Below, in pieces: positions 8,523 through 24,971 of a stretch of 64,000 nucleotides of DNA. The DNA is from Leucobacter sp. UT-8R-CII-1-4. GTDB taxonomy: Bacteria; Actinomycetota; Actinomycetes; Actinomycetales; Microbacteriaceae. The first letter of the stretch is position 1; each line of letters opens with the position of its first letter. The position numbers were made by a program, and so were the translations under genes. The notes below the pieces were generated by a model. The model did not search any database and was not told where the DNA came from. It saw only the letters and a list, made by a program, of their open reading frames with translations. The stretch covers positions 310,001 through 374,000 of the forward strand of contig NZ_JASCRS010000001.1 of NCBI RefSeq assembly GCF_030010235.1, read 5' to 3'.

Positions 8523-8523
8523 A

Positions 8524-9789: not shown

Positions 9790-9838
9790 TCTCGCAGCCT
9801 TTGGTGCGCTGGATCCCCCGCACACCGATTTGTCGCCC

Positions 9839-10059: not shown

Positions 10060-11649
10060 ATGACAGAACAGAATCAAGTTGAGATTCACGACGAAGATGC
10101 AGCGCATCTCGCGTCGCTCGGCTACAAATACGACACAACCTTCAAACGAGAGATGGGCTTCTGGGGCAATGTGTCTCTAGGTTTTACCTATCTCTCGCCC
10201 ATCGCGGGCGTCTACGCAATGTTCGCGTTCTCGTTTATGAGCGCGGGCCCGCCAATGGCATGGGCGCTCGTGATTGCCCTCGTCGGCCAGTTTTTTGTGG
10301 CACTCGTGTTTGGCGAAGTGGTGTCAAACTACCCGGTAGCAGGTGGCGTCTACCCCTGGTCACGAAGGCTCTGGGGCCGCAAGTGGGCCTGGATGAACGG
10401 CTGGATCTACGTCGTCGCGCTTGTCGGCACAATTGCCGCGGTCGCCTATAGCGTCGCGCCGTTTCTGCTCGATGCATTTCTCGGTTATGACGAGGGCCGA
10501 CCAGCTCCGACTGCGGGCCTCACAGTGGTGATCGCGCTGATCGCCCTTGCGATTGCCTCGGTGCTGAATTACATGGGCACCAAAGCGCTCAGCGCAGCGG
10601 CAATGATCGGTCTGATCGCTGAAATGATCGGCTCGGTCGCAATTGGTGTGTACCTCATCATTCGCAACTTCGTGTTCCTCGGCGACGGCGATCCAACGAC
10701 CGGTCACTCCTTTGCCGTGTTCTTCACCAACAAAATCACCGATCTGCAGGGCAATGTGATTGCAATTGGCGAGAATGGCCCATTCGGCAGCGGCGTTGGC
10801 GGCTACTTCGGCGCCTTCGCTTGGGCGGCACTGATCGGCATGTACGCCTACTACGGCTTTGAGGCGAATGGCGATGTCGCCGAAGAGGTGAAAGATCCAA
10901 GCCGTCGGGTGCCGAAGTCGATGCGAATGACACTTTACGTCGGCGGCATCACCGCGAACCTCCTGGTCTTCTCACTCGTTTTGGCTGTGCCCGACTACTC
11001 GGCAGTCGCAGACGGCACCGTCGCAAACCCGATTAGTGCCGCAATTAGCGATGCCTTCGGTCCACTCTTCCCTGTAGTGATGATCGTCGTCTCGATCGCG
11101 TTCATCTCGTGCGTCACGAGCCTGCAGGCAGCGGCCAGCCGGCTTCTGTTCTCAATGGGTCGCGATGGCTTCTTGCCTGCGTCAAAGTGGCTCGCACACC
11201 ACACCCCGGCACGCGGCGTACCAAGCAATGCGGTACTCACGGCAGCAGTGTTCCCCGCACTGTTTATTCTGCTGTCACTCTTCGCTGAGAATGCGCTCAC
11301 CGCGCTTATCTCCTTCGGCACGGTCGGTATCTACATTGGATTCCAGATGGTGGTGTTGGCGGCACTCCGGGCAAGATTCCTTGGCTGGAAGCCTGCAGGC
11401 AAGTTCAAGCTCGGTCCTTGGGCTTACCTCGTGAACATCATCGCGCTCGCTTGGGGTGTGGTTGCCATCGTGAACATCTCGTTCCCTTGGCCCGTAAATG
11501 ACAACACCTTCCTCGATTGGGCGGTACTTATCGTGCTCGGCATCGTGCTGGCTGTTGGCTTTGGCTACATGCTCATCACAAAAGCGCACCTGCGCGGCGA
11601 CGCACCAGCTGGCGATGCGAGCGGACCAATCAAAACCATCACTCGATAA
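10060..11649 (+). CDS. APC-family amino acid/amine permease
   Basis: 529 residues and about 12 to 13 membrane segments of the amino acid-polyamine-organocation family. The N-terminal 'GFWGNVSLGFTYLSPIAGVYAMF' and the 'FFVALVFGEVVSNYPVAGGVYPW' segment are typical of the permeases for GABA, choline and related amines. The ATG at 10060 follows GGGAG; the in-frame ATG at 10036 has no such site. It heads the island with gamma-glutamyl amide hydrolases and a glutamine-synthetase-like ligase, so uptake of an amine or amino acid that feeds those enzymes is likely. A hairpin at 11659-11688 lies before the next gene. Confidence 0.88.
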   Translation: MTEQNQVEIHDEDAAHLASLGYKYDTTFKREMGFWGNVSLGFTYLSPIAGVYAMFAFSFMSAGPPMAWALVIALVGQFFVALVFGEVVSNYPVAGGVYPWSRRLWGRKWAWMNGWIYVVALVGTIAAVAYSVAPFLLDAFLGYDEGRPAPTAGLTVVIALIALAIASVLNYMGTKALSAAAMIGLIAEMIGSVAIGVYLIIRNFVFLGDGDPTTGHSFAVFFTNKITDLQGNVIAIGENGPFGSGVGGYFGAFAWAALIGMYAYYGFEANGDVAEEVKDPSRRVPKSMRMTLYVGGITANLLVFSLVLAVPDYSAVADGTVANPISAAISDAFGPLFPVVMIVVSIAFISCVTSLQAAASRLLFSMGRDGFLPASKWLAHHTPARGVPSNAVLTAAVFPALFILLSLFAENALTALISFGTVGIYIGFQMVVLAALRARFLGWKPAGKFKLGPWAYLVNIIALAWGVVAIVNISFPWPVNDNTFLDWAVLIVLGIVLAVGFGYMLITKAHLRGDAPAGDASGPIKTITR

Positions 11650-11658
11650 CCCTTCCAG

Positions 11659-11688
11659 CAGTGGGCGTCCAGCGATGGGCGCCCACTG
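11659..11688 (+). terminator. Hairpin between the permease and PuuD-like gene
   Basis: CAGTGGGCG at 11659-11667 pairs perfectly with 11680-11688 over a 12-base loop. It has only a short mixed T tract (TCGTGTT), so it may be partial, allowing read-through into the next gene. Confidence 0.5.
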
Positions 11689-11718
11689 TCGTGTTACCCC
11701 GCCCGAAAGGAACCCCCA

Positions 11719-12495
11719 TTGACCTCCCCCATCGACCCAAACGAACTCACCATTGGCAACGAAGACCCGAACGGGCCCCTCATTTATGTCATTGGCCAGC
11801 TTGACTTTCCCGGCATGAGCGAGCTTGCCCGCGAGCTTGGCACCGCTCAAGCTCGCGGCTCATTCGATGGCATTCGGCAAGCCGGTGGGCGGCCACGCTT
11901 AGTTGCTTCTTCTGCGCTGGATCGCCCGGCACCCGGCACGATTCTCAGCGAGGCAGATGGCCTGGTCTTTCTCGGCGGCAGTGATGTCGATGTTACGCTC
12001 TACGACCAAAGTGGAGTCGAGCCAAATCACTATGGCGGTGCGGACAAGCGTGCTGATGAATACTGCATCGAACTTCTGCAGCAGGCGGCCGCGCAGAACA
12101 TACCTACACTTGCGTTTTGCAAGGGTTCTCAGCTCATGAATGTTGCTTTTGGTGGCACACTGATCGGCGATATCGGCGAGTGGCAGATGCACCGTGGCGC
12201 CCACCTGCCAGAGCTCATGATCGACGAACGGCTCACTCTCGATGAAGACTCCCTCATCGCAGCGATACTGGGTCGCACTGAGGTCACCGTGCGCAATGGT
12301 CATCATCAAGCGGTGGATCGCGTTGGCGACGCGCTGCGCGCCGTCGCCAACGCCGATGATGGCATTGTTGAGGGGGTGGAGCACCGTACTGCGAGCTTTA
12401 TGGTCGGCGTACAGTGGCATCCCGACGATGCAGGGGCAGACCTCACTGACCGGGCCCGGATCTTTGACGCTCTGATCTCTCGGGCAAAGGCATAA
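11719..12495 (+). CDS. PuuD-like gamma-glutamyl amide hydrolase (class I GATase fold)
   Basis: 258 residues of the peptidase C26 family, whose PuuD members hydrolyse gamma-glutamyl-GABA to glutamate and GABA. The nucleophile elbow is 'AFCKGSQLMN' (Cys about residue 134). The histidine region reads 'VQWHPDD', so the usual triad glutamate (HPE) is aspartate here. A TTG start is preceded by AAAGGAA. It lies 69 bp after the permease and is closed by a bidirectional terminator, suggesting a permease-hydrolase unit. A second, canonical paralogue lies at 18013-18756. Confidence 0.85.
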   Translation: MTSPIDPNELTIGNEDPNGPLIYVIGQLDFPGMSELARELGTAQARGSFDGIRQAGGRPRLVASSALDRPAPGTILSEADGLVFLGGSDVDVTLYDQSGVEPNHYGGADKRADEYCIELLQQAAAQNIPTLAFCKGSQLMNVAFGGTLIGDIGEWQMHRGAHLPELMIDERLTLDEDSLIAAILGRTEVTVRNGHHQAVDRVGDALRAVANADDGIVEGVEHRTASFMVGVQWHPDDAGADLTDRARIFDALISRAKA

Positions 12496-12496
12496 A

Positions 12497-12533
12497 CGAA
12501 GCGCTCACTGAGTGTGTCTCAGTGAGCGCTTCG
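12497..12533. terminator. Bidirectional terminator between hydrolase and flavodoxin genes
   Basis: A perfect 16-bp stem (12497-12512 with 12518-12533) with a TGTGT loop lies between two convergent genes, 1 bp after one stop and 7 bp before the other. T-rich tails are short on both sides. Confidence 0.75.
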
Positions 12534-12540
12534 CCAATGT

Positions 12541-12990
12541 TTACAGCCCGGCGGCCACAATCACGCCGGGCAACCATTCAAGCGCAATATCGCTGGGCAG
12601 ATCCCACGATGATGCATCGTGTCTGCCATACTCGCCCACCCGAGTCGCGCCGCGCTCGGCAAAACGGCGGTCGAGCTGTTCACTACCTTGGCTATAGGTG
12701 TCGTAGAAACTGTCGCCGAGCCCGAACATGGCGTACCGCAGCCCCTCAAGCGCTGGCGGGTTCTCGTCAAATCGCTCCGCGAACGGCAATGCCGTGTTGG
12801 GCAGATCACCCTCTCCGTGCGTCGAACAAACCACGATATAGAACTTCTCAGCGCTCAGCTCAGCTGGCTCAAAGTCACGCAGGTCAAAAACGTCGACATT
12901 TTCGTGGGTCTCACGCAGTTTTGCGCCAAGGTCTTCGGCGATCAGTTCGCTATTGCCCGATTCGGTGCCGTACAAGACGGTGATGTTCAT
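12541..12990 (-). CDS. Flavodoxin (short-chain, MioC-like)
   Basis: 149 residues with the FMN phosphate loop 'LYGTESGNSE' at the N-terminus, 'STHGEGDLPNTA' in the 60s loop and 'FGLGDSFYDTYSQGSEQLD' in the 90s loop, as in MioC-type flavodoxins. It carries electrons one or two at a time between a reductase and an oxidase. It lies 26 bp downstream of an FprA-type reductase and faces a P450, making it the likely redox partner. This matches the P450cin arrangement (P450, flavodoxin 'cindoxin', reductase) more than the common ferredoxin-linked systems. Confidence 0.9.
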   Translation of the reverse strand: MNITVLYGTESGNSELIAEDLGAKLRETHENVDVFDLRDFEPAELSAEKFYIVVCSTHGEGDLPNTALPFAERFDENPPALEGLRYAMFGLGDSFYDTYSQGSEQLDRRFAERGATRVGEYGRHDASSWDLPSDIALEWLPGVIVAAGL

Positions 12991-13016
12991 TGCTGTTCTC
13001 CAGTTTGTGTGGGTCG

Positions 13017-14288
13017 TTATTGGGTTTCGCGTCGTGCAATTCGAAGCATTTCCGCGGTGTCAAGAATTTTGCGGCGCACTCGGTCAGGGCCTGCCTGCGC
13101 ACGCTCGTGCGCATCGAGCAGGTGCCACTGCTCATACGAAATCGAGTTTGTGCGCACATCTTCGGGCAGCGACTCGAAACCGCCTCGGCCAATCGGGCCA
13201 GTAGATTCAGCGAGATCAGCAACGATCTCTTCAGCTACAGCTTTGGCACAGGCTCGGTTTTCTGGGATCGCTCCTCGCGGGCCACGTTTGGCCCAACCTG
13301 TTCGGTACAGACCCATTTCGATCCGACCTGTCTGGCTTGGCGTGGCAACGTATGTGGCGAGCGGATCGTTTCCAGCAGAAAACCCGGTGGCGATCAAGAC
13401 CGAGCTCGCCTCAATTTGTTCGAGTTTGCCGTCTTGTTCGAACTCGATGGCGCTGACTCGTTGATCGCCGACAAGTCGCACAGGCGTTGCACCAAATCGC
13501 AGACGCACACTTGCGCCTGGGGCAGCTTCGCGGGATTGTAGTGCGCGCAATGCCGCGAGCCGCGCGGTGGCCTGGCGGTCAAGCGTCCCTGCCTGTTCTT
13601 CGAGCGCGATGGTCTCGGATAGCCCAAAAATTTGGTAGTTGCCGGCTTCAAGCTTCGCGAGTTCTGCGAGCATTTGCGGGTCGCTCTTTGCGTTCGTGAT
13701 CTGTGAGCGGTTCAGCAGGGTCACCCGCGCGGCAGGCGATTCGAGGTAGCTTGCAAGCGCGTGTTCGGCAATGTCGCTGCCTTGATAGTCGGCCCCGGTT
13801 TTTACCAGAAAACGTAATAGGTCGATTGCGACGTTTCCGCCACCAACAATGACCACATCTTCACCGAGCGTTGGTAGCTCGGAGCGCTCTGCTGGGTGCG
13901 AGTTCAGTAGTCGGGTAATCGTGCCCGAGCCATAGACACCCGCCAGCTCCTCACCCGGCAAATGGATACTATTGTCGGCGTAGAGTCCGGTCGCGAACAC
14001 CACCGTGTCAAATGCAGCACGCAGTTCGGCGACACTGACGTCTGTACCGACTTCGATGTTGCCCGCGAAGCGCACGTTTGGCGCCACAAAAAGCCGGTCG
14101 AATTGCCTCGTGATCGCTTTGGTGTGCTGGTGGTCCGCGGCAACTCCGTAGCGGATCAGGCCGAAGGGCACTGGTAACCGATCGATGATGGTCAGATTTG
14201 CTTCTGGCAGCATGCGCTGGATCGACTGCGCTAGGTAGCAACCCGCAGGCCCGCTGCCGATTATTGCCATTTCCAGTGTCGAAGACAA
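13017..14288 (-). CDS. FprA-type NADPH-ferredoxin/flavodoxin reductase
   Basis: 423 residues of the adrenodoxin-reductase family. The FAD dinucleotide fold is 'AIIGSGPAGCYLAQ' near the N-terminus, followed by 'LPVPFGLIRYGVAADHQHTK', and the NADPH fold is 'VVIVGGGNVAIDLLRFL' near residue 150. It should pass electrons from NADPH to the adjacent flavodoxin. A TTG start at 14288 follows AGGAG by five bases; an ATG at 14270 directly before the FAD motif is the alternative. The gene forms an operon with the flavodoxin and is divergent from the P450. Confidence 0.88.
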   Translation of the reverse strand: MSSTLEMAIIGSGPAGCYLAQSIQRMLPEANLTIIDRLPVPFGLIRYGVAADHQHTKAITRQFDRLFVAPNVRFAGNIEVGTDVSVAELRAAFDTVVFATGLYADNSIHLPGEELAGVYGSGTITRLLNSHPAERSELPTLGEDVVIVGGGNVAIDLLRFLVKTGADYQGSDIAEHALASYLESPAARVTLLNRSQITNAKSDPQMLAELAKLEAGNYQIFGLSETIALEEQAGTLDRQATARLAALRALQSREAAPGASVRLRFGATPVRLVGDQRVSAIEFEQDGKLEQIEASSVLIATGFSAGNDPLATYVATPSQTGRIEMGLYRTGWAKRGPRGAIPENRACAKAVAEEIVADLAESTGPIGRGGFESLPEDVRTNSISYEQWHLLDAHERAQAGPDRVRRKILDTAEMLRIARRETQ

Positions 14289-14392
14289 GACCGCTCCTTT
14301 GCAGATCATTGGCATCGTCCAGGGGTTTGCACTTCAACGTTGAGGGCGCCCGGGTGATGCCAAAATATGTGGCTTGAAGTCAGTGTAGATGC

Positions 14393-14417
14393 AAAACATT
14401 CATTTAACGAATGTTTT
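14393..14417 (+). promoter_or_regulatory. Palindromic operator between reductase and P450 genes
   Basis: AAAACATTC at 14393-14401 and GAATGTTTT at 14409-14417 form a perfect 9-bp inverted repeat with a 7-bp AT-rich centre. It lies in the 293-bp divergent control region, 105 bp from the reductase start and 165 bp from the P450 start, and could coordinate both. The cognate regulator is not identified; GntR at 20273-21031 is one candidate. Confidence 0.55.
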
Positions 14418-14581
14418 AATCGCTAATTTCCCTACGTTTAGCCGGTAGATAAACAATTTCACTTGAATCACTTGCTTCTTAAAAGATTCAGTTATAGCTT
14501 ATTTGCAAGCAGATGAGCTTTCCTCTCGGTGCGCGAGCAATGAGCCGAAAGTATGCGAAGTATCGACAAAGGAGTAGATAT

Positions 14582-15796
14582 ATGAGCACTGCAATCGACG
14601 AGGTCGCGTACCTCGATATTGCATCCCCAGGATTCTCAATGAGTTCAGAAGCGGTGCGTGATGCCAGAGCTAAGCACTGGTATGCCCGCACAAACTACGG
14701 TGTCGCGGTACTGCGCTACCGAGAGGTCACCGAACTGCTGAAGCATCCAAGCCTCAATCAGGGTAGTGCTCAGTGGCCAGAACACAATGGCGTGCACTCA
14801 GGCATCTTCTACGAATGGTGGTCGAAGAACCTGCTCGTGCTCGAAGGCGAAGAACACCACCGCATTCGCCGCCTCTTGAATCCAGCATTTTCACCCCGCG
14901 TGGCCGAATCGCTGAAGCCAGAGTTCGCTGCGATCGCCGCCGAACTCATCGAGAACATGAAGCAGAAGCAAGCCAAGGGCGCTCAAGTGGAGTTTGTACA
15001 TGACTTCTCTGAGCCCTTCGCAACCCGCGCACTCTGCGCCATGATGGGGATTTCACACGAGCACTGGCCGTTTATCGCAGATCGCGCAAACACCATCGGA
15101 TATGCCCTCAGCATTAGCATCAAAGAAGATATCGAGAACATTGATCATGCGGTCACCGAGCTATACACCTTCGTCGAAGAACTGATTCAAGAGCGCACCG
15201 CGCAACCGGGCGACGACGTTGTTTCGCACCTGATTGCGTTCACCGCCCACGGTGACAAACTCAGCGAAGAAGAACTGCGAAATGCCCTCGTGCTGATGCT
15301 TTTTGGCGGAATGGATACCACTCGCAATCAGCTCGGACTCCTGATCCAGACTTACATTCGCTCGCCTCAACAGTGGGAACTACTCGCAGGCGACCCTGAA
15401 GCTCTCACCAAACCGGCCCTTGAAGAAGCTCTTCGGGTTAATCCGACCACCCGCTGGGTTACCCGTGAAGCCAACGAAGACTTCGAATTCAACGGCCTCG
15501 AAATCGCCAAGGGCACCACGGTGCATCTCTTCACCATGACGAGCGGTACCGACCCAGTTGCCTACCCTGACCCCGAAATCGATATTCTCGCGACCGATCG
15601 GCCTGCGCACCATACCTTTGGCGGCGGCGTGCATCACTGCCTTGGTCACTACATCGCCCGAGCAGATATGAGCGTGGCCTTGCCTATGCTCGCGAAGGCG
15701 TTCACCAAGCTCAGCTGCCCCGGCGGTGACGAGTGGCTGCCAGACTCTGGCAACCACGGTCCGATCACCTACCCGATTAATTTCGAGCTGCGCTAA
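14582..15796 (+). CDS. Cytochrome P450 monooxygenase
   Basis: 404 residues, soluble bacterial class. The I-helix oxygen-binding motif is GGMDTT (242-247), the K-helix ExxR is E282-R285, and the heme loop is FGGGVHHCLG with Cys353 as iron ligand. All key residues are intact. A strong AAAGGAG precedes the ATG by eight bases. It starts a run of same-strand genes (glutamine-synthetase-like ligase, solute-binding-like protein, PuuD-like hydrolase, GATase) and is divergent from its probable redox partners. P450 next to a glutamine-synthetase homologue recalls morpholine/piperidine degradation in mycobacteria. N- or alpha-C-oxidation of an amine is inferred, not shown. Confidence 0.92.
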   Translation: MSTAIDEVAYLDIASPGFSMSSEAVRDARAKHWYARTNYGVAVLRYREVTELLKHPSLNQGSAQWPEHNGVHSGIFYEWWSKNLLVLEGEEHHRIRRLLNPAFSPRVAESLKPEFAAIAAELIENMKQKQAKGAQVEFVHDFSEPFATRALCAMMGISHEHWPFIADRANTIGYALSISIKEDIENIDHAVTELYTFVEELIQERTAQPGDDVVSHLIAFTAHGDKLSEEELRNALVLMLFGGMDTTRNQLGLLIQTYIRSPQQWELLAGDPEALTKPALEEALRVNPTTRWVTREANEDFEFNGLEIAKGTTVHLFTMTSGTDPVAYPDPEIDILATDRPAHHTFGGGVHHCLGHYIARADMSVALPMLAKAFTKLSCPGGDEWLPDSGNHGPITYPINFELR

Positions 15797-15900
15797 CACC
15801 CCTCGTGCTGTGCACTGCAATTTGCACAGCTTCACCCAAGCCACAGGTTCAGTGCAGAACCCGTGTACTCACTCTCCTTCCAATGACGAAAGGAACCAAT

Positions 15901-17319
15901 ATGTCGCACTCAAATTCAGGTGGCGCTTTCGCCACAGCCCTTCGTGAGATTCTTGACGACGATCAGGCATTCGCACGACACCAGCAGGCAAATCTACGCC
16001 CCGAAGTGGTCAGCGCACTCGGCGAGAAGATTCGCACGAGCGGGGTGAAATACATCTACTACATGCTGCCGACTCTTGGTGGTCGCACAGTAGCGAAAGT
16101 GGTGCCTGCCGAGCACTACGAACGAATACTCAAAAAGGGAATCGCTTTTCACCGCACCGCGCTCACTGACCTACAGACCAGTCGCGAGGGCGAACTCATC
16201 GGTGGCGGCGTAGCTGCGCACGAGTTCTGGGCGCTACCCAACCCAGAAACCTTCACCCAATTACCGTGGGATCCGGAGGTAGGCCGAATGTTCTGCATCG
16301 CCTACGACCCACCCCAACTCAAAGATGGCGGCCGTCTCATCCCCCTCGACACACGAGCACTGTTCATCGCCGCGCACCGTTCCTTTACCGAGCGCACTGG
16401 GCTTGAATTGCGCAGCGGCCTCGAACCAGAGATGACCTGGGTAAGCCCAGACGTGCAGATTATCTCGAAAGAGGATCAAAGCCCGGCCTATCAGGTCGAA
16501 AACCTTGAGAAGATGCGCCCCGTCTACAAGAAGGTGATCAGCTATGCCCAAGCTATGGGCCTCAACATGATCCAGGGTGACTACGAAGACGACGGCCAGG
16601 TTGAGCTCAACTGGGAGTACGATCGCGCTGAACTCTCGGCCGAACGAATGACGACTTACCGTCAGATCTGCAAGCAGGTTGCGCGCGAAACCGGATTCCA
16701 GGCCAGCTTCATGCCAAAGCCGTACAACGGAAAAATGGGCAATGGTTGCCACCACAATATGAGTCTCTGGCGCGGCGAAGACAACATCATTGAAGATGGT
16801 CGCGTTGAGTTGCATGTGACGGAGGCCGCAAAACATGCCATTGGCGGCATGTTGAAGCACACCCCCGGCTCGATGCTGGTTATGGCGAGCACCGTAAACT
16901 CCTACAAACGTTTCTGGGACGCCGGCCAGTTCGCACCATCCGGTGCCGATTGGGGCCTCGACACTCGCGGTGTCGCGATCCGCATTTCCGCAAATGGCCG
17001 CATGGAGTACCGTTTGCCAGATGCCAGCGTCAACCCGTACCTTTCGCACCTCTACCTTCTCGCAGCTATTGAGCATGGCCTTGAAACTCAACTTGATCCA
17101 GGCGAACCTGGCCAGGTGAGCGCAGAAGTTGGCGAGATCTCTGTGCCGAACACTCTCGGCAGCGCTATTGAGGCGTTCGAAGCAGACAGTTACCTCATGA
17201 ACACAATGCCAAGCGAGCTCACCGAGGTGTATCTCAAGCTCAAGCGTGACGAATGGGCGCGCTATTGCGGTCAGATCACCGAGTGGGAGTTCCGTCAATA
17301 CTGGGAGGCAATTCCGTGA
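15901..17319 (+). CDS. Glutamine-synthetase-like gamma-glutamylamide ligase
   Basis: 472 residues with the full catalytic core of the family: 'GLEPEMTW' and 'GQVELNWEYDRA' (metal/glutamate ligands), 'GNGCHHNMSLW' (ATP-site histidine), 'NSYKRF' and 'NGRMEYRLPDASVNPYL' (Arg/Glu catalytic strand). Sequence context and surrounding genes favour the PuuA/IpuC/AtdA1-like group, which joins glutamate to an amine with ATP, over true nitrogen-assimilating GlnA. The ATG at 15901 follows AAAGGAA. The next gene overlaps its stop (GTGA), so they are translationally coupled. The amine substrate is unknown. Confidence 0.85.
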   Translation: MSHSNSGGAFATALREILDDDQAFARHQQANLRPEVVSALGEKIRTSGVKYIYYMLPTLGGRTVAKVVPAEHYERILKKGIAFHRTALTDLQTSREGELIGGGVAAHEFWALPNPETFTQLPWDPEVGRMFCIAYDPPQLKDGGRLIPLDTRALFIAAHRSFTERTGLELRSGLEPEMTWVSPDVQIISKEDQSPAYQVENLEKMRPVYKKVISYAQAMGLNMIQGDYEDDGQVELNWEYDRAELSAERMTTYRQICKQVARETGFQASFMPKPYNGKMGNGCHHNMSLWRGEDNIIEDGRVELHVTEAAKHAIGGMLKHTPGSMLVMASTVNSYKRFWDAGQFAPSGADWGLDTRGVAIRISANGRMEYRLPDASVNPYLSHLYLLAAIEHGLETQLDPGEPGQVSAEVGEISVPNTLGSAIEAFEADSYLMNTMPSELTEVYLKLKRDEWARYCGQITEWEFRQYWEAIP

Positions 17320-18020
17320 CCCGAATCATTCGACTGGCCTGCATCGACTCTGCAGCCCTACCACTCTTCGACAAAAGCCCAGACGGTGTGCGCCGCGAAG
17401 GTTACGAGCCTGCCGCAGCGGAACTGGTGTTGAGCAGGTTAGGCGCCGAAGTACGGTGGGTAATGCTGCCTTGGGACGACATGATCCCCGCGGTGCGTCG
17501 TGGCGATGCTGATGCGGTTTGGTGCGGCCAAGGCATCACTGCTGAGCGCTCGGCCCTGGTGTCTTTCACCAGGCCCTACGCCGTGTTTCATGAGACGCTC
17601 GCAGTTCGCGCCGATGATCCAGCGCGATCGCCTAACGATCTTGCCGGGTACCGAATTGGTGCGATCACTGGCTCGACCAATATGGCGCTCGCAAAAACCT
17701 TCCCCGGTGCTGAACTGGTGAATTTTGGCGCCAGTGACGACGTTTACGGCGAAATGATCGAGGCGACACGTTCGGGTGCCATCGATGGTTTTGTTGACGA
17801 CGATGTTGTCACGGTGCCGCTATGCCGGGAAGACCCTGACTTCGCTGAGGCGTTCACGATACAAACCGCGAATCAGTGGGGAGTCGGCGTCGCACCGGAC
17901 AACGTCGCCCTGCGAGACGAGATCAGTGCGGCGATTGACGCGGTGATCACCGATGGTTCACTCGAGCGAGTCTGGCGCGAGTGGATGCCGCTCTTGGCCT
18001 TCCCATTCGGCAATGACTAG
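17316..18020 (+). CDS. Family 3 solute-binding-protein-like protein without signal peptide
   Basis: 234 residues with the two-lobe fold of family 3 binding proteins for amino acids ('SALVSFTRPYAVFHETLAVRADD', 'IGAITGSTNMALAKTFP', 'GAIDGFVDDDVVTVPLC'). It begins 'MTRIIRLACIDSAALPLF', with no hydrophobic signal and no lipobox. The GTG start overlaps the ligase stop and its own end overlaps the next start, so it is locked into a cytoplasmic operon with no ABC permease or ATPase. It could be a cytosolic ligand binder or an enzyme of the cyclohexadienyl-dehydratase-like branch of this fold. No function is assigned. Confidence 0.8.
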   Translation: MTRIIRLACIDSAALPLFDKSPDGVRREGYEPAAAELVLSRLGAEVRWVMLPWDDMIPAVRRGDADAVWCGQGITAERSALVSFTRPYAVFHETLAVRADDPARSPNDLAGYRIGAITGSTNMALAKTFPGAELVNFGASDDVYGEMIEATRSGAIDGFVDDDVVTVPLCREDPDFAEAFTIQTANQWGVGVAPDNVALRDEISAAIDAVITDGSLERVWREWMPLLAFPFGND

Positions 18021-18756
18021 AGCAGAGACGGGCGGGGCACACGCGACTAAAACGCGTGTGCCCCGGATAGCCGTTGCGGGCATGTGGTCGCGGCTGATCC
18101 ACGGTTTACGTTTTGATGGCAGTGCGGTTTCTGCCGCGGTGCTGCAATCGGTAATTCGGGCCGGCGGAGAACCGTTCACACTGTTTGCCGAAAGCTCGCT
18201 ACCCGCGGCCGAGCGGCTTCGGGGCTTTGATGCGTTGCTGCTTCCAGGTGGCTTCGATATTGACCCGAAAAGATATGGCGAGGATCCGCTAGCCACCACT
18301 AAAACTGCAGATATGGCGGCACAAGACCAGTTCGAGGCCGAACTACTCAATGCCGCTGTCGCGATGGGCTTACCGGTGCTCGCAATCTGCCGGGGTTTTC
18401 AACTCGTGAATGTTGAGCACGGCGGCACACTTTTACAAGATCTTCCCGCCGACAGTCTGCATCGATCGGGCATCCATCCGGTGCAGATCGATGCCGAATC
18501 ACGTCTTGCGCAGGCAATCGGTTACACTGAGCTGCCGGTGTCTTCGTATCACCATCAGGCGATCGCCAGGGTGGGTGTTGGCTTGCGCGTTGTCGCACGC
18601 GCACCCGACGGCATCATCGAGGCGCTCGAACCGAGTGATTCAGGTATCCCGCTGCTCGCTGTGCAGTGGCACCCAGAAGACTCCGCCGCAGAGAACCCGC
18701 AGCAGCTAGCAATCTTTCGATGGCTAATTACTGCGGCTCTTGAGCATGTGGCTTAG
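18013..18756 (+). CDS. PuuD-like gamma-glutamyl amide hydrolase
   Basis: 247 residues of peptidase C26. The nucleophile elbow is 'LAICRGFQLVNVEHGGTL' and the His/Glu region is 'VQWHPED', so the Cys-His-Glu triad is complete. The second motif 'PVSSYHHQAIARVG' is typical of gamma-glutamyl-GABA hydrolases. The ATG at 18013 overlaps the upstream gene by eight bases. It probably removes the glutamyl group added by the ligase two genes upstream after the amine carbon chain has been oxidised. Confidence 0.88.
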   Translation: MTRAETGGAHATKTRVPRIAVAGMWSRLIHGLRFDGSAVSAAVLQSVIRAGGEPFTLFAESSLPAAERLRGFDALLLPGGFDIDPKRYGEDPLATTKTADMAAQDQFEAELLNAAVAMGLPVLAICRGFQLVNVEHGGTLLQDLPADSLHRSGIHPVQIDAESRLAQAIGYTELPVSSYHHQAIARVGVGLRVVARAPDGIIEALEPSDSGIPLLAVQWHPEDSAAENPQQLAIFRWLITAALEHVA

Positions 18757-18803
18757 CGCCAGAAGGCCCGGCGATCCCCCGCTACCAGAGAAAGGCAACA
18801 CAC

Positions 18804-19526
18804 TTGCAGAAGATTCTTGTTATTGAGCATCAACCCGATGCCGGGCTTGCCCACCTCGGCGAGCGCTTTGCAGAGCTCGGTATCCAGGTGACCACGGTGC
18901 AAGGACCGGCTGCAAGTGAACTGTCGCTCAATAGCGAAACCCTGCGTGAATTTGACGGCCTGATTGTGCTCGGCGGATCGGTGGGACCGCTCGACGATCT
19001 TGCGGCTCCCTGGCTGCCTGCGACTCGCGAACTGCTCGCGCAGGCTGTCGAGCAAGGGCTGCCAACTCTCGGCATTTGCCTTGGCGCACAACTGCTCACA
19101 GTGGCGCTTGGCGGCCAGGTGACCACTATGCCGAACGGCCCAGAGATTGGCCTGCAACAGGTCACGCTCAGTGACGCTGGCGAGTCCGATCCGCTTCTGG
19201 GCGGGTTGAGCGATGGCGACGATACTCTCCGTTCACTGCCGGTGGTGCAGTGGCACTGGCTTGAGAGTTCTGAGCTGGCACCGGGGTCTGTGTTGCTCGC
19301 CAGCAATGAACACTGCACAAATCAGGCCTTCCGCATTGGAGACCGAGCCTGGGGTCTGCAGTTTCATCCGGAGGCACTTGTCTCTGCGGTGCGGGCCTGG
19401 ACCAAGATTGATGATGTTTCAGAGCTCGGCCTCAATGAGGCAGACATTATTGCTGAGGTATCGGCTGAGACCCCTCGGCTACGGTTTATTTGGCAGCAGC
19501 TGGCCGATCGTTTCGCCGCGCTCTAG
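18804..19526 (+). CDS. GMP-synthase-like class I glutamine amidotransferase domain protein
   Basis: 240 residues, a single class I GATase domain. The nucleophile is in 'GICLGAQLLTVALGG' and the histidine-glutamate pair in 'LQFHPEAL'. There is no synthetase partner domain. Stand-alone proteins of this kind include AtdA2 of aniline degradation, which hydrolyses or handles a gamma-glutamyl intermediate together with the ligase AtdA1. The TTG start has AAAGG nine bases upstream. Its place after the PuuD-like gene suggests a role on gamma-glutamylated compounds; the exact step is unclear. Confidence 0.82.
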   Translation: MQKILVIEHQPDAGLAHLGERFAELGIQVTTVQGPAASELSLNSETLREFDGLIVLGGSVGPLDDLAAPWLPATRELLAQAVEQGLPTLGICLGAQLLTVALGGQVTTMPNGPEIGLQQVTLSDAGESDPLLGGLSDGDDTLRSLPVVQWHWLESSELAPGSVLLASNEHCTNQAFRIGDRAWGLQFHPEALVSAVRAWTKIDDVSELGLNEADIIAEVSAETPRLRFIWQQLADRFAAL

Positions 19527-19559
19527 TCTCGCATGGCTAGGCCGGGCAGAAAGCTCTCG

Positions 19560-20276
19560 CTATTGGCCAACGAGCAGTCTGAGTGAGGTGGCCGCTGGCT
19601 CGAGTGGGATCCAGCGCACCGATCCTTCGTCACCGGCAACGTATTCTCCCGGCAAATATTTTGGTGAGTTGCTGCAAAGCACGTGACCGTGCGCGCCGAC
19701 AACGGCCAGCGCAGTCTCATTTTTGAGAAGGATCGGCAACAGTTCGCGTTCAAGGTCGGGAACTTGAATATCGCAGCCGATCGCGCCAACGCGAGTGCCC
19801 TGAATCTCGGCTGGAACGGTGAGCGTCACCACGTACGCTTCGATACCGAGGTAGTCAATGTAGGGTCCAACTAACGACACTGCTCCATCGTGGTAGGCCC
19901 GAGTGAACCATTCGTGATGTTCATAGTCGTAGAAGCGATCAGCACCCGGAATCAGGCCAAATGAATAGCGTGAAAAGCGCTGCTCGTCTTCGCGCACCCA
20001 CCATTCAAGGTGACCACTTTGTTTATTTTCAGTCACCATCGAAGCGAAGATCAGGCCGCAACCGTCGGCAACCGTATTCTCGGAGAGAAAAGCAGCTGTT
20101 GCGTCACGAAGGTGTTTGCGTGCAGTCCCTGAGATGCTCACTCGCTCAGAACCCTCAAGCTGTACAACCTCAAGCAGTGTTTGAGCCAGCTGCTCTAGCT
20201 GAGAAAACTGTGCGTTCAGCCAATCGTTGAGCTTGCTGACGACTTCGGTGACTGGGTGGCTGTCTTGTGCGCTCAT
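19560..20276 (-). CDS. Soluble Cache-domain sensor protein
   Basis: 238 residues resembling a dCache_1 extracellular sensor ('HHEWFTRAYHDGAVSLVGPYIDYLG', 'VGAIGCDIQVPDLERELLPIL', 'LAVVGAHGHVLCSN'). It has no signal peptide, no membrane segment and no kinase or methyl-accepting domain. Its ATG overlaps the stop of the upstream GntR gene by four bases (ATGA), so the two are made together. It may act as a cytosolic ligand-sensing partner of that regulator. Related domains bind amino acids and amines. It ends 33 bp from the convergent GATase gene. Confidence 0.75.
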   Translation of the reverse strand: MSAQDSHPVTEVVSKLNDWLNAQFSQLEQLAQTLLEVVQLEGSERVSISGTARKHLRDATAAFLSENTVADGCGLIFASMVTENKQSGHLEWWVREDEQRFSRYSFGLIPGADRFYDYEHHEWFTRAYHDGAVSLVGPYIDYLGIEAYVVTLTVPAEIQGTRVGAIGCDIQVPDLERELLPILLKNETALAVVGAHGHVLCSNSPKYLPGEYVAGDEGSVRWIPLEPAATSLRLLVGQ

Positions 20277-21031
20277 GCTTCAGCCGCCTCACCCAAACGC
20301 TCCAAACGAAACTTCGCCTCCATGATGAACTCTCGATTGCGCGCGACATGCGCGACCGCTAAACGGTAGCTCTCATCAGGCTGACGCTGTTCTATCGCCA
20401 TGCTGATCGCGACGTGCTCCGAGAACGCCTGCTGTGCTGGCACTCGGCAGATACCCTCGCTCCACAAAAACGGCGAAAGCTCCGAGTGCAACCGCTGCTC
20501 CGCTGCCAACAGACGAGGCGATTGGCTCAGCACCGCAATTTCGAAGTGAAAACGGCTGTCTGCCATGGATTTTTCTCGTGAGGTACGGGCCTCTCGCGTG
20601 GCAAACGCGAATTCTGCCAGTCGCGTGTGGGAGCCGGGTTCGAGCCTTTCTGCAGCGAGCGTTGCGGCCATACCTGACACTGCGGCGTGCTCGTCAAAGA
20701 AATCACGCAGCGCGACGATGCTCGAGTGCCGCAGCTCTTGTTGCAGAGTTTGGTCAGACGGAAACGGGGTCTGCACGATGAAGGTACCGCCGTTGCGGCC
20801 GCGTCGAGTCTCAACAATTCCTTGAGCTCGCAACCGAGCCAGTGCCTTGCGTAGCGTTGCAACCGCGACGCCAAATTGATTGGCAAGTTCAAGCTCTGGT
20901 GGCAGTCGTTCGCCGACGCTCAGCATGCCCATTGAAATCGCGGTAGAGATACGCTGCGCGATCCCGTCGAGCGGCACCTCTTCAACAGCGTCAGCGCGCG
21001 ACTGGGCTGCAACGAAATTGGGCTGGCTCAC
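20273..21031 (-). CDS. FadR-subfamily GntR transcriptional regulator
   Basis: 252 residues. The winged helix carries 'LPPELELANQFGVAVATLRKALARLRAQGIVETRRG', and the FCD effector domain follows. The GTG start lies 138 bp from a divergent N-formylglutamate amidohydrolase homologue. It is translationally coupled to the Cache protein. It may control the amine island, but no repeated operator linking it to the P450 promoter was found. Confidence 0.87.
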   Translation of the reverse strand: MSQPNFVAAQSRADAVEEVPLDGIAQRISTAISMGMLSVGERLPPELELANQFGVAVATLRKALARLRAQGIVETRRGRNGGTFIVQTPFPSDQTLQQELRHSSIVALRDFFDEHAAVSGMAATLAAERLEPGSHTRLAEFAFATREARTSREKSMADSRFHFEIAVLSQSPRLLAAEQRLHSELSPFLWSEGICRVPAQQAFSEHVAISMAIEQRQPDESYRLAVAHVARNREFIMEAKFRLERLGEAAEA

Positions 21032-21169
21032 GATCCCAACGCTACCGTGGCAAACCTCGAAAGTGCTAGATATTTGCCCGGTTTCACGATGTTTCAGCCT
21101 TGCACTACCAGCACAGCTCTATCGACACCAGCCATTCACACTTTGGTCGCAAAAAGCTACGCTACGTAC

Positions 21170-22276: not shown

Positions 22277-22304
22277 ACGCGACTGTTTTCACTGCTTCTT
22301 GCGT

Positions 22305-23645
22305 TTAACCCCACAGCACGCCAAAAAGCGCACCGGCCGCGATCGTGGTTACTGCGAGTACAACTGACGGCCAGAAGAACGAGTGGTCAACAAGTTTGGT
22401 GCCGAGTTTTGTGCTGCCAGTGTGGTCAAAGTTCGCGGCGGCAATCTGTGACCCGTTGGTTGGCAGCAGATAGATGCCTGCAAACGCACCGGCCCACATG
22501 CCGGAGAGCAGGCCGAGTGGAATGCCCGCTGCGAGGCCAATCGGCACAATTGTTCTGGTTGCAGTCGACTGACTTGTGGTGAGCACACAAACCAGGAACA
22601 CACCGAGTGCGAAGATCCAGGGGGCTGCAGTGACCAGACCGCCGACACCCGAGGAGATCATCTCGGAGTGAGCCCCAAGGAAGGTGTCGGTGAGCCAAGC
22701 AAGACCAAAGAGTGCGATTGCCGAAACCATACCGGCCCTGAATACCGTCATCGTTGGGATCTCTGCGACTTTTGGCCTCGACACGATCAGGATCACGGTA
22801 CCGGTCACAAACATGACGATCTCGATGATCGGTGTCATTGATACCGGGTCGCCGGCGGCATCGAGCGGGCGCAATTGCTTGAAGAGGCCAAACACCACGA
22901 TTGCGGCAACACCCAGTAGGAAGATGGCTGCTGCGTTTCTGCCTGCCTTGGTAACTGTGACCTGGGCGCGGATTTCTTCTGCGTCACCGCTTGGCGCAGC
23001 AATTTCCCCCGAAGCAATTTTGGCTTGAATCTCTGGATCGTCCGCGATGTCTTTGCCGAGCTTGTTCACCACGATGCTTGAGAGCACGATGCCAACGATT
23101 GCCGCGGGAATGGTCACCTTCAAGATGTCGATGAGTTCGAAGTTCCAGGGTGCGGTGTCGGTGAGTGTCACCATTGCCGCCATAGCGGCTGAGACAGGGC
23201 TGCACGCGAGGGCGACACCGGTTGCTACGACCGAGAGTGAGAGTGGTCGTGATGGGCGAATACCGTTTCGGTATGACAGGTCCTGGATCACTGGGAGTAG
23301 CGGGTAGAGGATGTTTGAGGTGCCGGCTCCCACCGAGAACAAGAAGGCAACGAGTGGTGCGACCAGCGTGATCTGTTTTGGGTTGCGGGCGATTAGTTTC
23401 GCTGCGACCGAGACCATCCAGTCGATGCCGCCTGCTGATTGCATCATCGATGAGGCGAGCACGACCGCGAGCACAATAAGTAGCGCATCTACTGGGGGTG
23501 ATCCGGGGGCAAGTTGAAATACGAAGACGAGGATCGCAACGCCTGTGCCGCCCCAGAGCCCGAGGCCGACACCGCTGGAGCGCGTGCCCATGACGATGCA
23601 GCCGAGCACCACCAATAGTTGCGTGATGAAGAGTGCGATATCCAT
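22305..23645 (-). CDS. Anaerobic C4-dicarboxylate transporter (DcuA/DcuB-like)
   Basis: 446 residues with about 10 to 12 membrane segments. 'GAGTSNILYPLLPVIQDLSYRNGIRPSRPLS' (in two halves) and 'TSQSTATRTIVPIGLAAGIP' are hallmark regions of the Dcu family, which exchanges or takes up aspartate, fumarate, malate and succinate. A loop around residues 200-230 is charged and cytosolic. The ATG at 23645 follows AAGGAG. It converges with the amidohydrolase gene and may handle carbon or amino products of the island. Confidence 0.87.
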   Translation of the reverse strand: MDIALFITQLLVVLGCIVMGTRSSGVGLGLWGGTGVAILVFVFQLAPGSPPVDALLIVLAVVLASSMMQSAGGIDWMVSVAAKLIARNPKQITLVAPLVAFLFSVGAGTSNILYPLLPVIQDLSYRNGIRPSRPLSLSVVATGVALACSPVSAAMAAMVTLTDTAPWNFELIDILKVTIPAAIVGIVLSSIVVNKLGKDIADDPEIQAKIASGEIAAPSGDAEEIRAQVTVTKAGRNAAAIFLLGVAAIVVFGLFKQLRPLDAAGDPVSMTPIIEIVMFVTGTVILIVSRPKVAEIPTMTVFRAGMVSAIALFGLAWLTDTFLGAHSEMISSGVGGLVTAAPWIFALGVFLVCVLTTSQSTATRTIVPIGLAAGIPLGLLSGMWAGAFAGIYLLPTNGSQIAAANFDHTGSTKLGTKLVDHSFFWPSVVLAVTTIAAGALFGVLWG

Positions 23646-23953
23646 CGAAGCTCCTTCGCTCCTGAGTGAGTGAATTTCAACAGGGTTCTTCCTGAGAGTA
23701 ACCCAGTATGCGCCAAAGTCGGCAGAGAAACTTCACTCATCAGCAAATACTTTGGGCAGCTGTAGCAAACACTTAATGAGATGAGACAGATACTCACTGG
23801 GCCACGTCAACTACTCACGGCCGCGCACTCGCTCGCGCAACTTCGCGGCTCCTCGTTGCGCTGCCAACAGGCAGACTCGCAAAATGCTCAATACCTGCCA
23901 CGCACGTTTCAGTTCTGCAGAGCCACCGCGTCAGGCGCGAAAGGTTGTCGACG

Positions 23954-24958
23954 ATGTTTGAATCAGATGCCAGCACGGTCGCCCAGCAGGCCAATACCGG
24001 AGCTCTTCCCCCTGCTTCAGAAGTCAGCGCGCTAGTTCGAGAAGCGCACAGCAGATACGCCTCCCACTCCGAAGGAAAAGTAGCCGACTACATTCCGATT
24101 CTTGCTCGTGCACAGGCAGAGCACTTTGGCATTTCGCTAATTGAGGCCACCGGCGCGACCTACTCGGTCGGAGATTGGCAGCAGTCCTTTTCCATCCAGT
24201 CCATTTCAAAAGCATTCGTGTTCGCTCTCGTGTGCGATGCGATCGGTCACGAAGCGGTTCACCGACGGATCGGGGTCAACAACACCGGCCTGCCGTTTAA
24301 CTCAGTGATCGCGGTCGAACTCAATCGCGGCAGCCCCATGAACCCCATGGTGAATGCCGGCGCTATCGCAACGACAGCGCTTATTCCTGGTGACAGCCCG
24401 AGCGCTCAATGGGACTACATTCACAACGGCCTCTCTCGATTTGCCGGCAGAGAACTCCGTGTCGATGAGCTTGTCTACGAGTCTGAAATCTCGACCAACC
24501 AGCGCAATAGGTCAATCGCCGAACTACTCGATAGCTATGAGCGTCTGCCCGTTGATCCGCTTGACGCAGTTGATGTGTACACCCGGCAATGCGCGCTGGC
24601 GGTCACCTCGCAGGATCTTGCAATGATGGGCGCCACCCTTGCCGACGGGGGTGTGCATCCAATCAGCGGCGAACGCATTGTGTCGGCTGAAGTCGCCCGC
24701 GACACGCTTACGGTGCTGGCATCTTGCGGGCTCTATGAACGCTCTGGCGAATGGCTTTTCGAAATCGGCCTGCCCGCGAAATCTGGTGTTTCGGGCGGCA
24801 TTGTCGCAATCGCACCGGGCAAGGGAGCAATTGGCGCCTATTCCCCACCCCTCGACCCTGCCGGCAACAGCGTTCGGGGGCAACGCGCGTGCGCGTATCT
24901 CTCGCGAGCGCTCGGCCTCAACCTTTTTGCTTCAAACGCGCAGCAACAGGCCCGCTGA
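23954..24958 (+). CDS. glsA: Glutaminase (serine-dependent GlsA family)
   Basis: 334 residues. The catalytic Ser-x-x-Lys lies in 'SFSIQSISKAFVFAL', and other family marks are 'EPSGLPFNS'-like 'NNTGLPFNSVIAVEL' and 'PMNPMVNAGAIATT'. It converts glutamine to glutamate and ammonia. The ATG at 23954 follows AAGG; a TTG nine bases upstream is less likely. The next gene, an MFS carrier, starts 13 bp downstream, so they share an operon. In this setting it may recycle nitrogen or act on glutamine-like gamma-amides. Confidence 0.9.
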   Translation: MFESDASTVAQQANTGALPPASEVSALVREAHSRYASHSEGKVADYIPILARAQAEHFGISLIEATGATYSVGDWQQSFSIQSISKAFVFALVCDAIGHEAVHRRIGVNNTGLPFNSVIAVELNRGSPMNPMVNAGAIATTALIPGDSPSAQWDYIHNGLSRFAGRELRVDELVYESEISTNQRNRSIAELLDSYERLPVDPLDAVDVYTRQCALAVTSQDLAMMGATLADGGVHPISGERIVSAEVARDTLTVLASCGLYERSGEWLFEIGLPAKSGVSGGIVAIAPGKGAIGAYSPPLDPAGNSVRGQRACAYLSRALGLNLFASNAQQQAR

Positions 24959-24971
24959 AAGGACCACAATC

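What the first reader, a model, noticed from the sequence alone, without database searches (positions are those of the whole stretch)
10060..24958. Amine-catabolism island that may replace the Puu oxidase with a flavodoxin-driven P450
Seen: a permease, two PuuD-like hydrolases, a stand-alone GATase, a glutamine-synthetase-like ligase, a P450, a flavodoxin, an FprA reductase, an FGase homologue and a glutaminase within 15 kb. Known: the Puu pathway uses an importer, PuuA ligase, a flavin oxidase, an aldehyde dehydrogenase and PuuD; mycobacterial morpholine/piperidine degradation pairs a P450 with a glutamine-synthetase homologue; aniline degradation pairs a ligase (AtdA1) with a GATase (AtdA2). 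Inferred: here an amine is gamma-glutamylated and oxidised at carbon or nitrogen by the P450, then de-glutamylated. PuuB and PuuC equivalents are missing from the island. I know of no described system with exactly this set.
Basis: partly seen in the sequence, partly recalled or inferred. Interest (0 to 1): 0.75.

Follow-up and report, generated by a model that had tools for sequence, protein, structure and literature searches.

The report
Flavodoxin-driven ring-opening amine catabolism island
A Leucobacter-type bacterium carries a conserved gene set that probably opens ring-shaped amines with a P450 enzyme and then caps the opened product with glutamate; it looks like a flavodoxin-powered version of the pathway known in part from bacteria that eat piperidine and morpholine.

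Summary
The genes are real, but the island is smaller than reported: about 10036-21031. A permease, P450, GS-like ligase, cytosolic binding-protein-fold protein, C26 hydrolases and a GntR/Cache regulator pair recur together; the FGase homologue, dicarboxylate transporter and glutaminase occur in 0 of 66 related loci. The ligase is not GlnA-like at its ammonium site and in 249 family genomes occurs only beside the P450 (16 of 16). The same core, with a ferredoxin or no adjacent partner, stands in 20 of 20 loci fetched from a P450-rich, probably mycobacterial genus, often near glutarate-degradation genes. Gulosibacter P450s of this kind were reported 52-53% identical to PipA/MorA, and one set as induced on molinate (PMC9477822). 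Best reading: the P450 hydroxylates a free saturated N-heterocycle, perhaps piperidine; the ring opens; the ligase caps the amino-aldehyde; C26 hydrolases uncap the acid. Amine catabolism with P450 oxidation is supported; replacing Puu, and glutamylation before the P450, are not favoured. New here: flavodoxin/FprA as an exchangeable partner, and the unit as a whole with a candidate intracellular amine sensor. Substrate and step order are inferred.

The parts
10036..11649 (+). APC-family permease, likely amine importer
   Evidence: Pfam AA_permease_2; in 58 of 66 loci
11719..12495 (+). C26 (PuuD-like) gamma-glutamyl hydrolase a
   Evidence: Pfam Peptidase_C26; C26-type hit in 65 of 66 loci (C26a and C26b queries cross-hit, so this counts 'a C26')
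12541..12990 (-). Short-chain flavodoxin (MioC/CysJ-like), proposed electron carrier to the P450
   Evidence: Pfam Flavodoxin_1; 32 of 34 Micrococcales loci
13017..14315 (-). FprA/adrenodoxin-reductase-type reductase, proposed NADPH-flavodoxin reductase
   Evidence: Pfam Pyr_redox_2 over its cut-off; group of P450-type reductases split 100/100 from the other FprA rows; 33 of 34 loci
14316..14581 (.). Divergent promoter region with a 25-bp inverted repeat AAAACATTCATTTAACGAATGTTTT at 14393-14417, a possible operator
   Evidence: one match in the window (0.17 expected by chance), but among 147 fetched loci only in three copies of this same genome, so weak
14513..15796 (+). Cytochrome P450, of the kind reported as PipA/MorA-like; likely true start 14582
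   Evidence: Pfam p450; 61-83% identical relatives at 34 loci; 46-54% in 22 of 198 genomes of a P450-rich genus
15805..17319 (+). GS-like gamma-glutamylamide ligase; likely true start 15901
   Evidence: nearest PDB sequences 7cql (type III glutamate-ammonia ligase) and 9qur (glutamate-methylamine ligase); catalytic residues kept, ammonium-site residues not
17316..18020 (+). SBP-fold protein, read as cytosolic (no signal peptide seen), GTG start overlapping the ligase stop; amino-acid headgroup residues conserved
   Evidence: Pfam SBP_bac_3; alignments; AlphaFold pLDDT 94.2; closest to Arg/Gln-bound SBPs; 34 of 34 loci
18013..18756 (+). C26 (PuuD-like) gamma-glutamyl hydrolase b, ATG overlapping the end of the SBP gene
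   Evidence: Pfam Peptidase_C26; C26b query hits 64 of 66 loci
18804..19526 (+). Stand-alone class I GATase-like amidase; accessory
   Evidence: 22 of 66 loci
19560..20276 (-). Cache/PDC protein, candidate intracellular amine sensor (dCache_1AM type)
   Evidence: Pfam MCP-like_PDC_1; W123 and D169 invariant in 40 sequences; no Arg at the amino-acid carboxylate position in 21 of 22
20273..21031 (-). GntR-FCD transcriptional regulator, overlapping the Cache gene by 4 bases
   Evidence: Pfam GntR + FCD; 60 of 66 loci

Best explanation
It is an inducible catabolic island for saturated cyclic (secondary) amines, a flavodoxin-driven relative of the piperidine/morpholine P450 loci. Proposed steps: (1) the APC permease imports the amine; (2) the Cache protein senses it and the GntR-FCD regulator turns the genes on; (3) NADPH -> FprA -> flavodoxin -> P450 hydroxylates the carbon next to nitrogen, and the carbinolamine opens to an omega-amino-aldehyde; (4) the GS-like ligase gamma-glutamylates the freed primary amine, stopping re-closure to a cyclic imine; (5) an aldehyde dehydrogenase (in trans here, near the cluster in some relatives) makes the gamma-glutamyl omega-amino acid; (6) C26 hydrolases release the omega-amino acid and glutamate; (7) transamination and oxidation, and for a C5 amine glutarate to glutaryl-CoA to crotonyl-CoA. 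The SBP-fold protein, encoded overlapping the ligase and hydrolase genes, probably binds the gamma-glutamyl intermediate by its alpha-amino-acid head. Shown: gene content, conservation, ligase residue changes, mutual exclusion of flavodoxin and ferredoxin, nearness to glutarate genes in a third of loci. Inferred: substrate, order of steps 3 and 4, electron path, and the SBP and Cache ligands.
For: Core conserved: ligase 65, SBP 65, C26b 64 of 66 loci. Ligase only with P450: 16 of 16 ligase genomes among 249, same strand within 1.6 kb. The window ligase keeps E129, E131, E212, E220, H269, E357, R321, R339, R344, R359 but has H at D50, A at S53, a gap at Y179 and F at E327; PuuA and GlnT rows also lack these four. 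Flavodoxin 37, ferredoxin 19, both 0, neither 10 of 66. Mycobacterium-like loci have the same core, 20 of 20. Glutaryl-CoA dehydrogenase and/or the CoA-transferase within the fetched flanks in 21 of 66, both in 14; own genome has both side by side about 11 kb beyond the window (58% and 52%). PMC9477822 (passages and section 8): Gulosibacter P450s bioI and pipA about 52-53% identical to PipA and MorA; bioI and its reductase log2FC > 6 on molinate versus LB. A 51% identical P450 with two GS-type genes, ALDH, GATase and C26 lies on a plasmid of Paracoccus sp. TOH, a piperazine degrader by the title of a cited paper. A stand-alone intracellular dCache_1AM beside a regulator is reported in Actinobacteria (PMC10104139, passages).
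Against: No enzyme assay of these proteins came to light. The window P450 was not compared directly with PipA or MorA (sequences not held); the link goes through the Gulosibacter paper. The molinate comparison was minimal medium against LB, so it may reflect nitrogen or medium, and the second Gulosibacter set (pipA and its reductase) was not significantly induced (log2FC < 2). The glutarate genes are not seen in the fetched flanks of 45 of 66 loci, among them every Leucobacter locus; the CoA-transferase's best PDB hit is labelled formyl-CoA transferase and its NCBIfam score is below cut-off. No ALDH in the window island. One of 22 Cache proteins (L069) has Arg where amine sensors lack it. A gap at Y179 and A at S53 also occur in an own-genome row that groups with GlnA (L002), so only D50 and E327 are telling. 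The possible operator is not conserved. P450s without ligase are only 47-49% identical and may have another substrate, which weakens the order argument.
Confidence: 0.6

Rival explanations
1. One reading: the amine is gamma-glutamylated first, the P450 oxidises the gamma-glutamyl amide, then C26/GATase removes glutamate, as recalled for isopropylamine (ipu) degradation.
For: Strict co-occurrence of ligase with P450; nearest PDB sequences to the ligase include a glutamate-methylamine ligase, which acts on a simple free amine; the SBP-fold protein keeps an amino-acid headgroup site.
Against: P450 relatives occur without ligase, the ligase in 249 genomes not without P450; recombinant MorA oxidised free morpholine per PMC9477822. 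The ipu paper is not held, so that precedent is recalled.
Confidence: 0.2
2. A Puu variant: polyamine (putrescine/cadaverine) catabolism with the P450 in place of PuuB.
For: PuuD-like C26 hydrolases, GS-like ligase and APC permease; an agmatine-deiminase-type gene in 12 of 34 plus 2 of 23 loci.
Against: Ligase does not group with E. coli PuuA (long branch); own genome has a separate C26 + GS-like + ALDH set at C4:167-171 kb, though its GS did not group with E. coli PuuA either; Gulosibacter relatives reported PipA/MorA-like (PMC9477822). No agmatine-deiminase match in the whole window.
Confidence: 0.1
3. Another amine class, e.g. N-alkyl or choline-like natural amines, handled by P450 N-dealkylation, with the ligase consuming the released amine.
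For: dCache_1AM domains bind small methyl- and ethylamines (PMC10104139, passages); the module persists in genomes of 1.2-1.6 Mb, so the substrate is probably common in nature.
Against: Glutarate genes beside 21 of 66 loci point to a C5 omega-amino acid. No C1 gene was among the ten neighbour representatives that were annotated, but most neighbour clusters were not annotated.
Confidence: 0.1

Closest known systems
PipA (M. smegmatis piperidine) / MorA (Mycobacterium HE5 morpholine) P450 loci
   Same: P450 kind (about 52-53% for Gulosibacter relatives, PMC9477822); neighbouring GS-like gene and GntR-type regulator (recalled for the named loci; seen here in the Mycobacterium-like loci)
   Different: Here the P450's neighbours are a flavodoxin and an FprA-type reductase, not a ferredoxin and its reductase; the Cache, SBP-fold and C26 proteins are part of the unit in both, as one search shows for unnamed relatives
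Gulosibacter molinativorax ON4 bioI/pipA neighbourhoods (GMOLON4_435-438 and 3049-3052; PMC9477822)
   Same: Consecutively numbered electron carrier, reductase, P450, GS; the bioI set induced on molinate; G. chungangensis, named there as a likely carrier, is locus L030 with flavodoxin, FprA, P450, GS, SBP and C26
   Different: In the parts read, that paper ties the GS to ammonium assimilation and does not describe SBP, C26 or Cache proteins as a unit; the carrier type is not stated
E. coli Puu pathway
   Same: Permease, gamma-glutamyl ligase, C26 hydrolase logic
   Different: No PuuB or PuuC in the island; ligase not with PuuA; P450 does the oxidation
xplA/xplB RDX locus on pGKT2 of Gordonia KTR9 (names recalled; its P450 is 99.8% identical to that of the DN22 plasmid)
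   Same: FCD, Cache, P450 (47%) and GS (53%) in the same order, then XplB (40% to FprA) and XplA with a flavodoxin part (43%)
   Different: The GS match stops at residue 442 and the frame runs on into XplB; XplA haem part only 25%; XplB is not placed inside the island FprA group
Aniline AtdA1/AtdA2 and 1-naphthylamine NpaA1 systems (PMC11335346, passages)
   Same: GS-like ligase with a GATase-like enzyme and an oxygenase (aniline system)
   Different: Aromatic amine and Rieske dioxygenase there; 8wwu (identity as NpaA1 recalled) scores 75 bits against 194 for 7cql

Membership tests
PipA/MorA-type N-heterocycle P450 locus | P450 in the PipA/MorA family | tested here: inconclusive
   PipA/MorA sequences not held; 46-54% identity to P450s of a P450-rich, probably mycobacterial genus; published about 52-53% for Gulosibacter relatives (PMC9477822)
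PipA/MorA-type N-heterocycle P450 locus | Ferredoxin and ferredoxin reductase as partners (as described for MorA) | tested here: not met
   0 of 34 Micrococcales loci have the ferredoxin; 32 have flavodoxin; no ferredoxin match in the window with that query
PipA/MorA-type N-heterocycle P450 locus | Adjacent GS-like gene and nearby GntR regulator | tested here: met
   window, and 34 of 34 / 30 of 34 loci
PipA/MorA-type N-heterocycle P450 locus | Oxidises free cyclic secondary amine | not testable with these tools
   needs enzyme assay
Puu pathway | PuuA-type ligase | tested here: not met
   tree (quick method, SH-aLRT only; E. coli PuuA on a long branch)
Puu pathway | PuuB flavin oxidase and PuuC dehydrogenase in the cluster | tested here: not met
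   none among the 18 proteins at 7105-26588 scanned
Glutamine synthetase GlnA | Ammonium site D50, S53, Y179, E327 (roles recalled) | tested here: not met
   H, A, gap, F in the window ligase
Gamma-glutamylamide ligase (GmaS/GoaS kind) | Metal and phosphate residues kept, ammonium site lost | tested here: met
   a few relatives have Lys at R339 or R359 (L044, L069, L070, pGKT2)
Gamma-glutamylamide ligase (GmaS/GoaS kind) | Ligase activity on an organic amine | not testable with these tools
   needs assay
XplA/XplB | Flavodoxin fused to P450 haem domain | tested here: not met
   separate genes on opposite strands
dCache_1AM amine sensor | Shared aromatic pair and Asp kept, amino-acid carboxylate Arg absent | tested here: met
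   W123 and D169 invariant, F124 at least 90% in 40 rows; no Arg in 21 of 22; equivalents of PctD R103/D133 and W155 not established
dCache_1AM amine sensor | Binds amines | not testable with these tools
   needs calorimetry

The most novel reading that the evidence does not exclude
The island defines a general 'open and cap' pathway for saturated N-heterocycles: any of several electron carriers drives a P450 that opens the ring, a dedicated ligase traps the amino-aldehyde as a gamma-glutamyl compound before it can re-close, and a cytosolic substrate-binding-protein-fold protein handles the gamma-glutamyl intermediate (as carrier or new enzyme), all under an intracellular amine sensor. It is a natural pathway, kept even in 1.2-1.6 Mb genomes, and it explains the GS gene beside pipA/morA and the GS-XplB fusion of the RDX plasmid as a recombination scar.
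Probability: 0.35. Interest if true: 0.75.

Novelty: new variant of a known kind. Interest (0 to 1): 0.55.

Why it matters
Saturated N-heterocycles are common in drugs, pesticides and industry, and what follows the first P450 step in their breakdown is, to my knowledge, poorly known. If right, this assigns a function to the GS-like gene next to the piperidine/morpholine P450, shows the redox partner to be an exchangeable part, adds a cytosolic use of a substrate-binding-protein fold, and gives named targets for simple tests. It also offers an origin for the GS piece fused to XplB on an RDX-degradation plasmid.

Tried and rejected
Rejected: FGase, Dcu and glutaminase as parts (0 of 66). Not favoured: island as Puu replacement (see above). 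Considered: XplA/XplB as direct descendants of the island's flavodoxin/FprA; the FprA tree puts XplB in the same group of P450-type reductases (100/100) but at an unresolved base (87/66), and FprA-flavodoxin pairs stand beside other oxygenases and another P450 on plasmids, so descent is not claimed. Considered: a conserved operator in the divergent promoter; the palindrome is specific to this genome.

From their listings (titles and starts of abstracts; 20 of 35, 20 of 83 and 20 of 9,291 papers listed) I saw no paper describing this unit beyond PMC9477822. The library lacks most subscription journals and lacks Chong 2014 and de Azevedo Wasch 2002, so this is no proof of novelty. PMC3662644 (passages): one GlnR peak beside a P450 gene with no differential expression, and none of the other 8 GS homologues of M. 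smegmatis GlnR-regulated; the word piperidine does not occur in it. PMC10820124 (passages) gave the DN22 xplA context. PMC12866759 (one passage) only named Paracoccus sp. TOH.

The P450 tree (window, 15 of the 34 loci, 19 other loci, 3 outliers) and the ligase tree (28 rows) used the quick method without bootstrap.
Full report
Observation. The finding does not list a Cache/PDC protein (19560-20276, minus) and a GntR-FCD regulator (20273-21031, minus), whose frames overlap by 4 bases. The host genome (G000, 3.0 Mb, 9 contigs) is unnamed; it shares its genus with G208, whose contig length equals that of Leucobacter salsicius, so I call it Leucobacter-type. Ligase, SBP-like protein and C26b genes overlap: the GTG of the SBP gene overlaps the ligase stop (17316-17319) and the C26b ATG (18013) precedes the SBP stop. 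From that start the SBP-like protein begins with its first beta strand at residue 3, so no signal peptide is seen.

Boundaries. One search found 35 loci; 34 (L006-L039) encode a P450 61-83% identical and one (L040, 27%) was left aside. In those 34: ligase 34, SBP 34, C26a-type 34, C26b-type 33, FprA 33, flavodoxin 32 (L010 and L023 miss it at contig starts), Cache 30, FCD 30, permease 26, GATase 20; FGase, Dcu, glutaminase and the genes left of the permease 0. One search covers 66 loci in four groups: 34, 20 Mycobacterium-like, 7 ferredoxin-type and 5 other loci of the family (four re-fetched duplicates, L052, L054, L055, L062, dropped). Totals: ligase 65, SBP 65, permease 58, FCD 60, Cache 59, FGase/Dcu/glutaminase 0. 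The one locus without ligase or SBP at the threshold, L066, ends at a contig end. C26a and C26b queries cross-hit, so they count any C26. L041-L047 and L067-L070 were counted (23 extra loci: ligase 17, SBP 13), not.

Co-occurrence. In 249 genomes of the family (own included) the P450 (E <= 1e-70) is in 19 and the ligase (E <= 1e-90) in 16; all 16 ligases lie on the P450's strand within 1.6 kb. The three P450 genomes without ligase at that cut-off are G038 (contig end; a partial ligase is visible) and G049 and G223 (48% identity; no other island gene at the thresholds; L067, L068). Genomes of 1.2-1.9 Mb are among the carriers. In 396 genomes of the phylum only three, own included, pass 1e-80. 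In 198 genomes of one P450-rich genus (unnamed; probably Mycobacterium from size and P450 number, an inference) 22 carry 24 matches at 46-54%; 20 of the 24 were fetched. All 20 have permease, FCD, ligase, SBP and C26; 19 have Cache; none has flavodoxin or FprA; 12 have a ferredoxin, 4 a ferredoxin reductase like that of R. opacus. On plasmids, R. opacus 1CP has P450 and ligase about 20 kb apart, and Streptomyces L046 and L047 have P450 and ferredoxin without ligase.

Redox partner. Across the 66 loci flavodoxin is in 37, ferredoxin in 19, both in 0, neither in 10 (two at contig starts). In the P450 tree (quick method, SH-aLRT only) a 19-row group (100) holds all ferredoxin rows and also L064/L065, which have flavodoxin and sit with the Streptomyces ferredoxin rows (100); the other flavodoxin rows lie outside it. 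The FprA of L064/L065 groups with reductase parts of long open frames that also hold flavodoxin and P450 parts (99/97). This suggests two recruitments. Parts of the P450 tree are unresolved.

Ligase. In 28 aligned rows the window ligase keeps all ten metal and phosphate residues checked but has H, A, gap and F at D50, S53, Y179 and E327 of E. coli GlnA (site roles recalled). Most relatives do the same; exceptions are Lys at R339/R359 in L044, L069, L070 and pGKT2, T at D50 in L036, V at S53 in L044, Y at E327 in L032. PuuA and GlnT also lack the four. An own-genome row that groups with GlnA (L002) has A and gap at S53 and Y179, so D50 and E327 carry the argument. The island ligases with those of R. 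opacus, TOH (one) and Ruegeria (one) form one group (100), next to GlnT (81), apart from the GlnA group (96). PuuA rows have long branches and are unsure. Nearest PDB sequences: 7cql and 9qur.

SBP-fold protein. D11, R78, S120 and D161-D163 are invariant in 32 rows. In the alignment with AncQR R78 and D162 fall on the Arg and Asp that in this family hold the alpha-carboxylate and alpha-amine (roles recalled). The model (pLDDT 94.2) matches Arg/Gln-bound binders with TM about 0.84 and open or apo forms with about 0.5-0.65. A free alpha-amino-acid head is what a gamma-glutamyl amide would offer; the ligand is not shown.

Regulator. [quoted passage not shown] The window pair fits: W123/F124 and D169 conserved, the amino-acid-type Arg absent in 21 of 22 (L069 has it). 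The spacing D169-T151 equals PctD D235-S217. The PctD R103/D133 pair was not traced.

Substrate. PMC9477822 (passages; section 8) reports in Gulosibacter molinativorax two P450s about 52-53% identical to PipA and MorA, with contiguous reductases, electron carriers (435, 3049) and GS (438, 3052). bioI and its reductase rose log2FC > 6 on molinate against LB (fprA 7.44 in its Table 2), the pipA set did not (log2FC < 2); GS 438/3052 is called overexpressed. Molinate leads to a seven-membered cyclic amine. G. chungangensis KCTC 13959, which that paper names as a likely carrier, is L030 with flavodoxin, FprA, P450, GS, SBP and C26. Glutaryl-CoA dehydrogenase (best PDB match 3sf6) and a CoA-transferase (best NCBIfam model succinate-glutarate type, below cut-off; best PDB label formyl-CoA transferase) lie within the fetched flanks in 21 of 66 loci, both in 14: 13 of 20 Mycobacterium-like, 5 of 34, 2 of 7, 1 of 5. 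In the window's genome relatives of both stand side by side about 11 kb beyond the window (58% and 52%). This favours a C5 omega-amino acid, hence piperidine, but 45 loci without it leave other rings open. Paracoccus sp. TOH, whose plasmid has a 51% identical P450 with two GS-type genes, ALDH, GATase and C26, is a piperazine degrader by the title of a cited paper.

Order of steps. P450 first is preferred because P450 relatives exist without ligase and, in the genomes searched, not the reverse, and because recombinant MorA with its partners oxidised morpholine (PMC9477822). gamma-Glutamyl capping of an amino-aldehyde would prevent ring closure, the rationale recalled for the Puu pathway.

pGKT2. 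In Gordonia KTR9 the order FCD, Cache, P450, GS equals that of Mycobacterium-like loci such as L129; after ligase residue 442 the frame runs on into XplB, 862 codons open from 11845 of L041. I read the GS-XplB fusion as a scar where xplAB joined such a locus. In the 23 kb fetched of the DN22 plasmid p5, xplA/xplB stand without a second P450 or GS annotated.

Own genome. It has 19 Aldedh matches, a second P450 + GS-like + GATase amine island at C1:914-932 kb and a C26 + GS-like + ALDH set at C4:167-171 kb.

Noticed in passing
G000:C1:914-932 kb (L071, L072): A second amine island: ALDH, reductase, P450 (28% to the window's), GS-like, GATase, flavodoxin-FNR reductase, APC permease, C26, aminotransferase, ALDH, GntR (names partly by eye from the reading frames).
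   Followed up: partly
L041 11845-14433 (pGKT2, Gordonia KTR9): GS-like gene truncated and in frame with xplB, behind FCD, Cache and P450 genes of the amine-island type.
   Followed up: partly
L080/L108, L088/L113, L089/L114, L096/L111, L099/L117: Open frames of about 1000-1070 residues that hold FprA- and flavodoxin-like parts and a P450-like part in other genomes of the genus.
   Followed up: no
L046, L047: Related P450 (47-49%) with ferredoxin inside Streptomyces plasmid clusters with ectA, ectB and ectoine synthase genes but no GS-like gene.
   Followed up: no
Leucobacter loci, e.g. L011:3695-4717: Agmatine-deiminase-type gene (below the NCBIfam cut-off) in 12 of 34 plus 2 of 23 loci.
   Followed up: no
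window 21047-22276: FGase-like gene only 15 bases from the divergent GntR-FCD start; found in none of the loci compared.
   Followed up: no
window 14393-14417: 25-bp inverted repeat in the P450/FprA divergent promoter, single in the window, not found in relatives.
   Followed up: yes
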